Positions 30,685-36,322 of a DNA stretch of 64,000 nucleotides are shown piece by piece. Source of the stretch: Crambe crambe (Eukaryota; Porifera; Demospongiae; Poecilosclerida; Crambeidae); NCBI GenBank assembly GCA_963924555.1, contig OZ004594.1, positions 2,325,563-2,389,562 of the forward strand, read 5' to 3'. A program made the position numbers and the translations under genes. How positions within the stretch are numbered: the first letter of the stretch is position 1; every line of letters begins with the position of its first letter. The notes beneath the pieces are model-generated. The model had not been told where the DNA came from. It worked only from the letters and a program-made list of their open reading frames with translations, and ran no database searches.

Positions 30685-32011
30685 ATGGATAAGAATCAGA
30701 AATTTATCAAAATTAAACTTCGAGCTGTGGCAGTAAATGTAGCCGAAAAGCTCACGGCGAGAAATATAAAGTCATTGGCTGTGATCTACAATGTAAAAAC
30801 AAGCCTAGAGGGTACAAATCATTCAGGAGCCGATCTTATGGAGCACCTTCTACAACAAGAGTTGGTAGCAAATTCCAGAAGAAGTTTAGATATGTTTAAA
30901 GAATGTCTGGAAAAAATAGAACGCAAGGATCTGACACATCTTGTGGATGAGTATTTGGAAAAATATTATCTGCCATTAGAAAGTTCTGATTTGGCTCAGG
31001 GTCTGTTTTATACCAGTACTACTCAGGGGATCAAAGAAGATCAACCCGATCTTTCAAAGTCTACAGCAGTCCCAGGCCAAGGGTAAGTAAGGTGTACATG
31101 ACATTAACTTGACTTTTTTTAATATGTTGACTCATGGCAGAAATCAGCCCAAAAGAGAAAGATTGAATATAGTAAGTCCCTCTACTTTTAGCAACTGTGA
31201 TGTCGTGGAATGTTAACTACATGTAACCGCATGCACAATCGTGCATGCATTGCAGCTGATGAAGAAAGAGATCTAGAAGAGGTCACATCTGAAACAATGA
31301 TTTGTGACAGTACTGTCAGTGCCTTTCAATTTGATGAGACTGAATATGCTTGTGAAGTTACAGAAGAAGATAAGAAATATATGAAAGAAGCAATAGAGTG
31401 TGCTAAAAAGAGTCCAGATCCACAAACTAAGGTATGGCAGCCAGCTGCCTAATATCTGCTGGTTTGTGTTTATTATATTATTTGGGTCAGGTTGGTGCTG
31501 TGGTAGTAAAAGGAGGCAAAGTGGTGGGACGGGGATGGAACCGAATGCCACTGGGATGCGAAACAAGATTTTCTTGGCAGCGAGATAAAGATAAGCCTAT
31601 AGAGGAAGGAAAACACTATTATGGTACGATAATTATTAGCTAGCTTATAAACTAGCAGATTATGCTATTCAAAAATAATGTTACAGTGGTATATGGAATC
31701 AGAGCGGCAATAATTGATGGCTACAAGAGTGGAGCAGATTTGAGAGGAGCAACACTCTACACTACTCTCTACCCAAGCAATGTCTGTGCCCAGTGTATCA
31801 GAGATGCTGAGATTGCAGAAGTCGTTTTCATCTCTGATAAATTTTACAAAACGAAGTTTGTGGAAGCTGCTAAAAGGATCTTGGAAGGAATCAAGTGCAG
31901 GTAGAGTTACTACACTATACTACATGTACATTATTAGGTAGCATTATAGCTATATATATATTATTACAATGCTAAAACTAATAATGCAGGTTGTACAATG
32001 TACAAGACTAG
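30685..32011 (+). CDS. DED-dCMP-deaminase-like fusion, gene 1 (one frame conflict)
   Basis: Exons: 30,685-31,082 (death effector domain, DED), 31,141-31,171 (basic, KRKIEY frame), 31,256-31,431 (acidic linker), 31,491-31,623, 31,687-31,900 and 31,990-32,011 (stop). The DED is recognisable by its six-helix hydrophobic pattern and the RxDL motif (RKDL, residues 80-83). The C-terminal part has the dCMP deaminase order VGAVVVKGGKVVGRGWNRMP, then VVYGIRAAI where active enzymes have CHAE-x-NA, then TTLYPSNVCAQC where they have PCNEC. The zinc His, catalytic Glu and first zinc Cys are therefore Tyr, Ile and Ser. Exon 1 ends in phase 2, but exon 2 needs phase 0 to keep the reading that fits exon 3. 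That means a one-base indel, alternative splicing or recent decay of this copy. DEDs mediate oligomeric signalling to caspases; a regulatory or nucleotide-sensing role is inference. Confidence 0.7.
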
Positions 32012-32298
32012 CAGATTGTCAAATGGAATTGCTGTTTAGCCCAAGAAGAGAATACAGGTCTTTCTCTCGCCATCATCCTATTCATAATCTGTGAAACTGT
32101 ATCACGTCACTGTCTATCGAGTAACTCTTTGGCTTTATTCCATGAACGTTGTTATTTTCTATAATACTGCAATACTGTTTTGTTAATTTATGAAGTGTTA
32201 TAGCTATTATACCAAATAGTTGATTTTTAAAAAGTTTGCACAGCTCTATTATAATTTGCATAAATCTATAGCTATAGCTAGTTTCAGTTATCTTGCAT
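32012..32298. other. 3' flank of gene 1
   Basis: Non-coding. It matches 3,899-4,220 of unit A, confirming the origin of the translocated gene end. Confidence 0.6.
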
Positions 32299-32564
32299 GC
32301 GGGGTTTCATCTCAAGGAGGGGGGCGCAGGGGAAGCTTCCCCTCCAAACAGCTCAACTTCCCCCCCAAAGCTTCCCTCCCCCCCCCCCCCCCCCCCCCAA
32401 GATATTGCCAAAAGAAAGAGTTTTAGGATAAAAAATAGTAGTATAGTTTTAGGATCCAGTGTGGGAGGGGGCACATCCCCTGCACCCCCCACCATGGCCT
32501 TATGGCCACACGTTCCATGAGCTTCCCCTCCAAGGTGAAATTCCTAGATGAAACCCTGCGGCGC
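32299..32564. mobile_element. 266-bp TE insertion with 3-bp CAT target duplication
   Basis: Unit A has the empty site CTTGCATGACTC. Here the same context is split: CTTGCAT, then the insert, then CATGACTC. The insert starts GCGGGGTTTCATCTC and ends with the inverted TAGATGAAACCCTGC, plus a poly-C stretch in the middle. No coding capacity. The 3-bp duplication narrows the superfamily but CAT is not the TWA of PIF/Harbinger. Confidence 0.8.
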
Positions 32565-34528: not shown

Positions 34529-34735
34529 GTCAAGAATTAACTGACAGCACAAAATTAATAACAATGTCAATTCAATTCAACATTAAACCATACTATACTA
34601 GCAGCTATTACAGCGCGCGCGTGCGCATGATTTTCGCGGGCACGGGATTATTTTAGGGGACTCCCCTATTTATTTTTACTGTCAAAGAATAAACAAACGC
34701 TTTAGCAGAGACTTGGCACCGTGTTCTTATTGTCC

Positions 34736-36322
34736 ATGGATTCCACAAGTTCTGAAAAAGTGAAGAACCGAAAAGTGTTGAGATTTAGAGGAATGCTGAC
34801 AAGAGTCGTTCAAAAACTTACACCAAAAGATGTGGAGTATTTAGCATTCATCTATGACGTGGATATAAGCTCTTTTGCTGAGTGTATAGGACTTAAGGTC
34901 ATGGATGATATTGTAAAACGAGAGTTAGTCACCAACTGTTTAAGTTGCTTAAAATCATTGAAAGAGAGACTGGAAGAAATAGGCCGTAAGGATTTGACAC
35001 ACATACTGGAAGACTACATGCAGAGAACTGAACTACCTTGCGATCTCACTGAATCAGAGATACTTCCGCCTCAGGTTTCCCATCCACTATTGATACCTGC
35101 AAGTACCGAAGAGAATCAGGGTGATATTACTAAGTCTACAGTAGTACCTGGGTGAGTAGATTGTACACTAATACTGAGGAAAGATGCCTGAATGCAGAAC
35201 AATATCAGTATTTGTCACATTTAGCATTATTTCAATCCAGGGAAGATTATCCAGGACTAAATCTCAGAATTCATGGCAATCGAGCAAAAAAACGCAAGCT
35301 TAAGGTGTACTGTGAGTTTAAAAGCATGTTTTTTGAGTTTTGCATGATAATTATTTATTTTAGCTGAGGAAGCAAGAGATCTGGAAGAGGCTATAACTGA
35401 ATCCATGCTTTGTGATACTACTGTGGACAGTTCAGATGAAACTGAAAGTGTATGTGATATTAGTGATGACAAAGGTGAAACAACAGAAGAAGATAAGAAG
35501 TTTATGAATGAGGCAAAGGAGTGCTCCAGGAAAAGCCCAGATACAGAGACTAAGGTAAAATAGACAATAGCATAGGCCATAGTGAAAAAGGAGTCAGCTA
35601 ATTAAAATATCGTACATGTACAGGTGGGTTCTGTTATAGTGAAAGATGGTAGAATAATTGGACGAGGGTGGAACAGAATGCCAGTTGGATGTGAAGAAAA
35701 GTTTCCCTGGGAACAAAAAGATACGGAATCTTTAGTGGATGGAAAGCATTTATATGGTAGGCTACACACTGTAAAAAAAAATGTGTAAAAACAACCCATT
35801 TTTAGGTTATCTAGCTTTGCAAATTGCAACTCAGATAACCTAAAAATGGGTTGTTTTTACACATTTTTTTTTTACAGTGCACGGTGTACTTCTGTAAATA
35901 TTATGTGCTTGCTATACACATGTAATAAAATTATGTTGTATACTTATTAATAGTGGTGTATGGAATAAGAGCGGCAATATTTGATGCTTTCAAGAGAAGA
36001 ACTGATCTAAACGGATCAATACTTTATACTACCCTCTATCCCAGCAACATATGTGCCCAATGCATCAGAGATGCTGGCATCGTTGAAGTGGTGTACATCA
36101 GCAATAAGTTTCACAGGACTAAATTCATGAGAGCTGCACGAAAGATACTGAAAGACGTCAAGTGCAGGTGATTGTATTTTAACTAGGCAGTTGGATAAAT
36201 TTGTAGTGCTAAGCTCAGCAATGTCCTACATTATAGATGTATGGTAACAACTACATTACTTCTGAAGTTAACTTTGAAGTTGTTATTATTTGTACTACAG
36301 ATTATACAATGCACAAGACTAA
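34736..36322 (+). CDS. DED-dCMP-deaminase-like fusion, gene 3, 348 aa
   Basis: Exons 34,736-35,151, 35,241-35,311, 35,364-35,554, 35,624-35,756, 35,954-36,167 and 36,301-36,322 give a clean 348-residue frame, the best-preserved copy. DED at about 14-95 with RKDL at 84-87. Exon 2 encodes the strongly basic NRAKKRKLK. The linker is rich in Asp/Glu. Deaminase fold: VGSVIVKDGRIIGRGWNRMP, then VVYGIRAAIFDAF, then LYTTLYPSNICAQC, then FMRAARKILKDVKC and the LYNAQD end. Zinc His, catalytic Glu and first zinc Cys are absent; the second PCxxC Cys and one extra Cys (CAQC) remain. A MITE occupies intron 4. Alternatives such as a different metal site or a nucleotide-binding role cannot be excluded. Confidence 0.8.
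35767..35879. mobile_element. MITE hairpin in intron 4 of gene 3
   Basis: A near-perfect foldback of two arms of about 45 bp (CACTGTAAAAAAAAATGTG on the left, its complement ending TACAGTG on the right) around a short loop. The arms share the AACCCATTTTTAGGTTATCT block in inverted form. Confidence 0.85.

What the first reader, a model, noticed from the sequence alone, without database searches (positions are those of the whole stretch)
30685..36322. Tandem family joining a death effector domain to a deaminase fold
Seen: three neighbouring genes with the same six-exon plan, exon 1 coding a DED (hydrophobic six-helix pattern and RxDL motif in each) and exons 4-6 coding a dCMP-deaminase-like fold. 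Known: DEDs assemble FADD/caspase-8-type complexes, and deaminase folds bind nucleotides or nucleic acids. Inference: the proteins could couple nucleotide or nucleic-acid sensing to death-fold assembly. I know of no described protein with this architecture.
Basis: partly seen in the sequence, partly recalled or inferred. Interest (0 to 1): 0.93.

Follow-up and report, generated by a model that had tools for sequence, protein, structure and literature searches.

The report
Death-domain proteins with dead nucleotide enzyme
A sponge genome carries three neighbouring genes, each apparently joining a cell-death assembly domain to a copy of a nucleotide enzyme that has lost its catalytic site, which hints at a cell-death switch built on a former DNA-precursor enzyme.

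Summary
Three tandem genes (A 30685-32011, B 33316-34528, C 34736-36322) share a six-exon plan with identical splice phases. Exon 1 encodes a death effector domain (DED): Pfam E 2e-7 to 2e-4, below the curated cut-off, but 28.5-31.9 bits with a DED model from this genome against 11.7 for the best of 9,999 shuffles. The end of exon 3 through exon 6 encodes a domain closest to dCMP deaminase (DCTD). Gene A's exon 2 is uncertain.

Related exons from outside share this (14 of 14 for the Cys, 11 of 11 that cover HAE). The genome's intact DCTD has the same three introns, so the domain is a repurposed DCTD copy under purifying selection.

The host is probably the sponge Crambe crambe (contig lengths). 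Best reading: a DED on an oligomerising pseudo-deaminase scaffold, perhaps nucleotide-gated. Splicing of exon 1 to the rest, oligomerisation, ligand and signalling are inferred. No transcript was available, and the structure model was unusable.

The parts
30685..32011 (+). Gene A: six exons 30685-31082, 31141-31196 (tentative), 31256-31431, 31491-31623, 31687-31900, 31990-32011; 332 aa
   Evidence: exon 2 chosen to keep the frame, with a weak donor
33316..34528 (+). Gene B: six exons 33316-33707, 33761-33798, 33857-33993, 34044-34179, 34241-34454, 34513-34528; 310 aa
34736..36322 (+). Gene C: six exons 34736-35151, 35241-35311, 35364-35554, 35624-35756, 35954-36167, 36301-36322; 348 aa
30685..31082 (+). 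Exon 1 of A: death effector domain with R80-K-D82-L83; Asn27 at the helix-2 acidic position
   Evidence: Pfam DED 31.6 bits; 28.5 bits with the genome-DED model
33316..33707 (+). Exon 1 of B: death effector domain with R77-T-D79-L80 and Asp27
   Evidence: Pfam DED 28.3 bits; 29.3 bits with the genome-DED model
34736..35151 (+). Exon 1 of C: death effector domain with R84-K-D86-L87 and Asp32
   Evidence: Pfam DED 21.9 bits; 31.9 bits with the genome-DED model
31256..32011 (+). Exons 3-6 of A: acidic linker end and pseudo-deaminase (YGI for HAE, PSNVC for PCxxC, GWNR)
   Evidence: PF00383 61.2 bits; alignment to DCTD
33857..34528 (+). Exons 3-6 of B: linker end and pseudo-deaminase (YGI, PSNIC, GWNR)
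   Evidence: PF00383 63.6 bits; alignment to DCTD
35364..36322 (+). Exons 3-6 of C: linker end and pseudo-deaminase (YGI, PSNIC, GWNR)
   Evidence: PF00383 60.9 bits; 2w4l E 2.2e-19; alignment to DCTD
29573..30340 (+). Decayed copy: exons 3-5 only, with frame breaks and stops; no DED exon found upstream
13718..14485 (+). The same decayed copy in the neighbouring 15.8-kb repeat unit (a third lies just upstream of the window, in L004)

Best explanation
These are three tandem genes for proteins made of an N-terminal death effector domain, a variable linker rich in acidic residues, and a C-terminal catalytically dead dCMP deaminase. The deaminase part arose by duplication of the animal's own DCTD gene and lost two zinc ligands and the catalytic glutamate. 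It is kept as a fold. Proposed mechanism: the pseudo-deaminase still forms the DCTD-type ring (known DCTDs are homohexamers), which brings up to six DEDs together and seeds a DED assembly with FADD-like adaptors and tandem-DED caspases. Nucleotide binding at the old inter-subunit allosteric site may gate the ring, so that a change in deoxynucleotide pools or a competing ligand triggers or blocks assembly. Shown by sequence: the DED, the dead DCTD fold, the DCTD ancestry, purifying selection, and candidate partner genes. Inferred: splicing of exon 1 to the rest, oligomerisation, ligand, and outcome.
For: Splice phases are the same in three diverged copies. DED by Pfam, by a genome-specific model and by profile-profile comparison. 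Best solved match of C is human DCTD 2w4l, E 2.2e-19. HAE is lost in A, B and C and in 11 of the 11 outside exons that cover it; the first Cys of PCxxC is Ser in 14 of 14 outside exons. The intact DCTD in the same genome shares all three intron positions and phases. dN/dS is 0.10-0.17 for the pseudo-deaminase and 0.21-0.36 for the DED, with bootstrap ranges below 1. Candidate partners: tandem-DED ORFs beside caspase ORFs at two places and a FADD-like DED and DD exon pair. Reported DCTDs are ring hexamers, stabilised by dCTP at an interface site with motif G(Y/W)N(A/G) (PMC12088426, passages); the family has GWNR.
Against: No transcript. Gene A's exon 2 needs a weak donor. DED scores are below Pfam's curated cut-off. 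The 4th position of the allosteric motif is Arg, not Ala or Gly, so ligand binding may be lost. The DED exon was found in the protein database only for this window (3 of 3 hits), so the fusion is seen in one genome only and the outside exons may belong to proteins without a DED. The structure model was of low confidence. Gene A has Asn where the DED charge triad wants Asp or Glu. In CDADC1 the putative allosteric site is present in the active domain yet unoccupied (PMC12088426), so a retained motif need not mean binding.
Confidence: 0.45

Rival explanations
1. Regulatory subunit of the enzyme: the dead copies co-assemble with the intact DCTD in mixed rings and tune dCMP deamination, while the DED only localises or clusters the complex.
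For: 35-40% identity to the genome's own DCTD with the same introns. The pseudo-domain is more conserved than the DED. In vertebrate CDADC1 an inactive DCTD-like domain alternates with an active one in the ring (PMC12088426, passages).
Against: 60-65% divergence from DCTD may prevent mixed rings. A DED with a conserved RxDL motif would be an odd addition to an enzyme modifier.
Confidence: 0.2
2. Constitutive inhibitor or decoy, like cFLIP or PEA-15: a single DED on a fold that binds no ligand caps DED assemblies and restrains the tandem-DED caspases.
For: In a profile search of solved structures, 5 of the 7 chains at E<=1 are cFLIP (E 0.09-0.59, weak). One DED per protein and no known effector domain.
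Against: The ring-forming ancestry of the partner domain favours clustering over capping. The matches are weak.
Confidence: 0.15
3. Two separate genes: a single-exon DED gene (exon 1 reads on to a stop just past the donor) followed by a short pseudo-deaminase gene starting inside exon 3.
For: An in-frame stop follows the donor of exon 1 within 25 bases in each copy. Exon 2 is short and variable, and in A it is uncertain. The decayed copies carry exons 3-5 without exon 1.
Against: The phases of exons 1, 2 and 3 agree in three copies whose DEDs are only 34-47% identical. Exon 1 and exons 3-6 sit together in the same order in all three.
Confidence: 0.12
4. Non-functional local duplicates on the way to decay, like the broken copies next door.
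For: Broken copies lie in the adjacent 15.8-kb repeats. Gene A's exon 2 is irregular.
Against: All coding exons of the B and C models are open, as are A's as modelled, and dN/dS is well below 1 in both domains. The same dead site is kept in outside exons.
Confidence: 0.05

Closest known systems
dCMP deaminase (DCTD; human structure 2w4l)
   Same: fold; 35-40% identity to the sponge's own DCTD; three intron positions and phases; GWN of the allosteric motif; second Cys of PCxxC
   Different: His and Glu of HAE and the first Cys of PCxxC are lost; 4th allosteric position is Arg; a DED and linker are added
CDADC1, vertebrate (d)CTP deaminase with an inactive DCTD-like domain (PMC12088426, passages)
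   Same: contains a DCTD-like pseudo-deaminase with a structural role
   Different: CDADC1's dead domain keeps PCxxC (HAG for HAE) and is joined to an active deaminase domain; no death-fold domain is described in the passages seen
FADD, caspase-8 and cFLIP DED proteins
   Same: DED with RxDL; B and C keep the acidic partner residue as well
   Different: no death domain or caspase; a single DED joined to a pseudo-enzyme
Bacterial anti-phage dCTP deaminase (NF041025; PADLOC dCTPase)
   Same: weak similarity in the deaminase core of B (44.9 and 54.5 bits)
   Different: those proteins are named as active enzymes, while this one lacks the catalytic residues; score far below the NCBIfam cut-off of 400; best matched stretch 42 residues; no DED is listed for them there

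Membership tests
Death effector domain | Pfam DED profile match | tested here: inconclusive
   significant (E 1.9e-7 to 2.1e-4) but below the curated cut-off of 35.9 bits; supported by the genome-DED model and hhalign
Death effector domain | RxDL motif (definition: PMC3877032, passages) | tested here: met
   RxDL in 3 of 3
Death effector domain | acidic helix-2 partner of the charge triad (D/E-RxDL) | tested here: inconclusive
   Asp in B (27) and C (32), Asn27 in A; the position was placed by eye from recalled PEA-15 letters
Death effector domain | six-helix death fold | tested here: inconclusive
   AlphaFold2 mean pLDDT 56 from 3 sequences, helical but unreliable
DCTD (dCMP deaminase) | deaminase fold by profile | tested here: met
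   PF00383 60.9-63.6 bits, cut-off 25; C against 2w4l E 2.2e-19
DCTD (dCMP deaminase) | HxE motif (zinc ligand and catalytic Glu) | tested here: not met
   YGI in 3 of 3
DCTD (dCMP deaminase) | PCxxC zinc motif | tested here: not met
   PSNxC in 3 of 3 and in 14 of 14 outside exons
DCTD (dCMP deaminase) | G(Y/W)N(A/G) allosteric motif | tested here: inconclusive
   GWNR in 3 of 3: three of four positions
DCTD (dCMP deaminase) | homohexamer | not testable with these tools
anti-phage dCTP deaminase (NF041025) | curated model score | tested here: not met
   B scores 44.9 bits against a cut-off of 400; A and C not given to that call

The most novel reading that the evidence does not exclude
A death-fold sensor of deoxynucleotide pools: a dead DCTD ring that reads dCTP/dTTP (or a nucleotide made during infection) through its former allosteric site and presents a ring of DEDs that seeds caspase-8-type assembly, kept across several genomes (probably sponges) by the shared pseudo-active-site signature [YF]-[AG]-[IV] ... 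PSNxCAQ.
Probability: 0.2. Interest if true: 0.92.

Novelty: new variant of a known kind. Interest (0 to 1): 0.74.

Why it matters
Death-fold domains are usually switched on by receptors or sensors. A metabolic enzyme that lost catalysis and gained a death effector domain would be a direct route from nucleotide metabolism to cell-death assembly in an early-branching animal. It gives a testable system: three small genes, an intact parental enzyme in the same genome as control, and a FADD-like candidate and tandem-DED caspases to test as partners.

Tried and rejected
Rejected: an active deaminase (two zinc ligands and Glu lost); a link to nucleic-acid editing (best solved match is DCTD; among weaker ones is a tRNA adenosine deaminase, E 1.5e-4, and TadA at 31.7 bits); an integrated decoy, because the deaminase part evolves more slowly than the DED; filing it under bacterial anti-phage deaminases (score far below cut-off).

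Considered and not settled: gene A exon 2. A 31-nt exon with the strong donor at 31172 breaks the frame; a 56-nt exon with a weak donor keeps it; a 14-nt exon using an inner AG would also keep it (the last by hand). A may therefore be compromised. Another sponge of similar genome size, Diacarnus erythraeanus (140.86 Mb, PMC13087572, passages), was considered as host; the length match with Crambe crambe was preferred.
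Full report
WHERE IT IS. The window lies at C17:2325563-2389562 of a 143,139,886-base assembly of 119 contigs. The nine contigs whose lengths I saw all match chromosomes of the Crambe crambe assembly odCraCram1.1: C1 9.566, C5 9.494, C6 9.083, C9 8.844, C14 7.327, C15 7.245, C16 7.061, C17 6.799 and C19 6.536 Mb, against chromosomes 1, 3, 4, 6, 11, 12, 13, 14 and 16 (PMC12166358, passages with table 2). The paper gives 143.20 Mb in 124 scaffolds, so the file is close to it but not identical. I take the host to be this demosponge. 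That is an inference from lengths.

GENE MODELS. Three genes in tandem on the + strand were assembled with GT-AG introns. A is 30685-32011 (332 aa), B 33316-34528 (310 aa), C 34736-36322 (348 aa). The phases after exons 1-5 are 2,1,0,1,2 in each, although exons 1-3 differ in length. B and C are straightforward. In A the strong donor of exon 2 breaks the frame and a weaker one was chosen, so A's join between DED and deaminase is provisional. In the whole genome, exon 1 of B finds exon 1 of A and C and one weak DED elsewhere (E 0.008) (the tool calls such counts lower bounds).

THE DED. Pfam gives DED at E 1.9e-7, 2.1e-6 and 2.1e-4. All three are below the curated cut-off, and no other death-fold family is listed. 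An HMM from 19 other DED segments of this genome (of the 29 DED hits; of the ten left out two are exon 1 of A and B, and the rest were not fetched or were partial) scores the three exons 28.5, 29.3 and 31.9 bits; the best of 9,999 shuffles scores 11.7. The 19 DEDs themselves, some of them near-copies, score 25.8-92.8 when left out one at a time. Profile-profile alignment gives 98.2% probability over 78 columns; the best of 30 column shuffles reaches 10.3%. All three carry RxDL; B and C also have the acidic residue of the charge triad described in PMC3877032 (passages). The AlphaFold2 model from 3 sequences is too poor to use (mean pLDDT 56).

THE DEAD DEAMINASE. PF00383 matches at 60.9-63.6 bits, and the best solved relative of C is human DCTD, 2w4l, E 2.2e-19. 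Alignment to the genome's own DCTD shows VCHAELNAI replaced by VVYGIRAAI, and PCNEC by PSNIC or PSNVC. Thus the zinc-binding His, the catalytic Glu and the first zinc-binding Cys are lost, while the second Cys and the Asn of the GYN/GWN loop remain. [quoted passage not shown] The family has GWNR.

ANCESTRY. The intact DCTD gene (L002; C9:5676851, minus strand) has introns at the same three places with the same phases: before V of VGA (phase 0), in the codon of the V before CHAE / VYGI (phase 1), and in the codon after the last C (phase 2). The printed column of the third DCTD intron differs (188 against 181) only because its split last codon was left off the translation. Identity to DCTD is 35-40%. 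The pseudo-domain therefore most likely comes from a duplicated DCTD gene, to which DED and linker exons were added upstream. The other PF00383 matches of the genome outside this family are an ADAT2-like gene (L001) and a CDA-like gene (L003) (the two names are my reading of the ORFs).

BEYOND THIS GENOME. A search with exon 5 gave 17 proteins. Three are marked as the window's own (P0003, P0004, P0017) and 14 come from other public sequence sets, at 65-78% identity. All 14 have Ser for the first Cys. Eleven of 14 cover the HAE site, and none of the 11 has His or Glu there: Tyr or Phe, and Ile or Val instead. By eye most read like exons bounded at the same two splice points. Their organisms are not given. 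P0006 and P0007 both list a longest contig of 3,050 bases, so tandem copies may exist elsewhere too. The DED exon search returned only the window's 3 exons. This can mean fast divergence, the search's need for exact 5-residue words, or pseudo-deaminases without a DED; I cannot tell which.

SELECTION. Pairwise dN/dS is 0.10, 0.15 and 0.17 for the pseudo-deaminase and 0.21, 0.34 and 0.36 for the DED; all bootstrap ranges lie below 1, though those of the two domains overlap. Synonymous sites are near saturation, so the values are rough. The difference in the share of nonsynonymous changes, which does not use synonymous sites, is 0.13-0.21 with ranges above zero.

PARTNERS. Tandem-DED ORFs sit beside caspase ORFs at two places on C16 (L007, L008). 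A partial DED match and a partial death-domain match lie about 0.3 kb apart on C1 (L018), as expected of a FADD-like gene. DED ORFs beside protein-kinase ORFs occur on C14. In none of these was the joining of the ORFs into one transcript tested.

HOW IT MAY WORK. Established knowledge: DEDs polymerise (recalled), and DCTDs are rings stabilised by dCTP (PMC12088426). Inference: a ring of dead subunits displays several DEDs and seeds assembly, and ligand at the old interface site may gate it. The Arg in GWNR either adds a phosphate contact or closes the site; sequence cannot say. The stronger conservation of the pseudo-domain argues that its surface or ligand matters.

NOVELTY. I found no description of the architecture in open-licence PMC papers by the searches (listings; passages only of PMC8195603, PMC12909245 and PMC9885605). 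Most subscription papers are not held; a paper on metazoan AID/APOBEC-like deaminases (PMC5889660) and one on dTTP-bound DCTD (PMC4281768) could not be read. A sensor domain joined to a death fold is a known kind of system; the DCTD-derived dead domain is a new variant.

Noticed in passing
window 1-14722 and 15819-30576, probably continuing upstream of the window (L004): A 15.8-kb tandem repeat (98.9% identical) with a 1498-1501-aa open frame in each unit; Pfam found nothing for either frame, and the PDB one weak match (E 0.045) for the second.
   Followed up: partly
window 3725-4219 and 19543-20037: Both repeat units also hold a 79% identical fragment of gene A's 3' end (31842-32299).
   Followed up: no
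window 36587-36658: A tRNA match (40 bits, Rfam) begins 265 bases after gene C.
   Followed up: no
window 44699-45874 (-) and 51786-53840 (-): Long open frames matching an alpha-galactosidase and a multicopper oxidase.
   Followed up: no
window 35768-35879: A near-perfect inverted repeat, seen by eye in intron 4 of gene C (about 45 bases per arm), resembling a small mobile-element remnant.
   Followed up: no
P0013, an outside exon-5-like protein: It resembles the window's decayed copies more than the three genes (shared upstream stretch with P0017), so that copy too has a close relative in another data set.
   Followed up: no
L016 and L017 (C14): Two near-identical DED ORFs, each next to a protein-kinase ORF, suggesting DED kinases in this genome.
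   Followed up: partly
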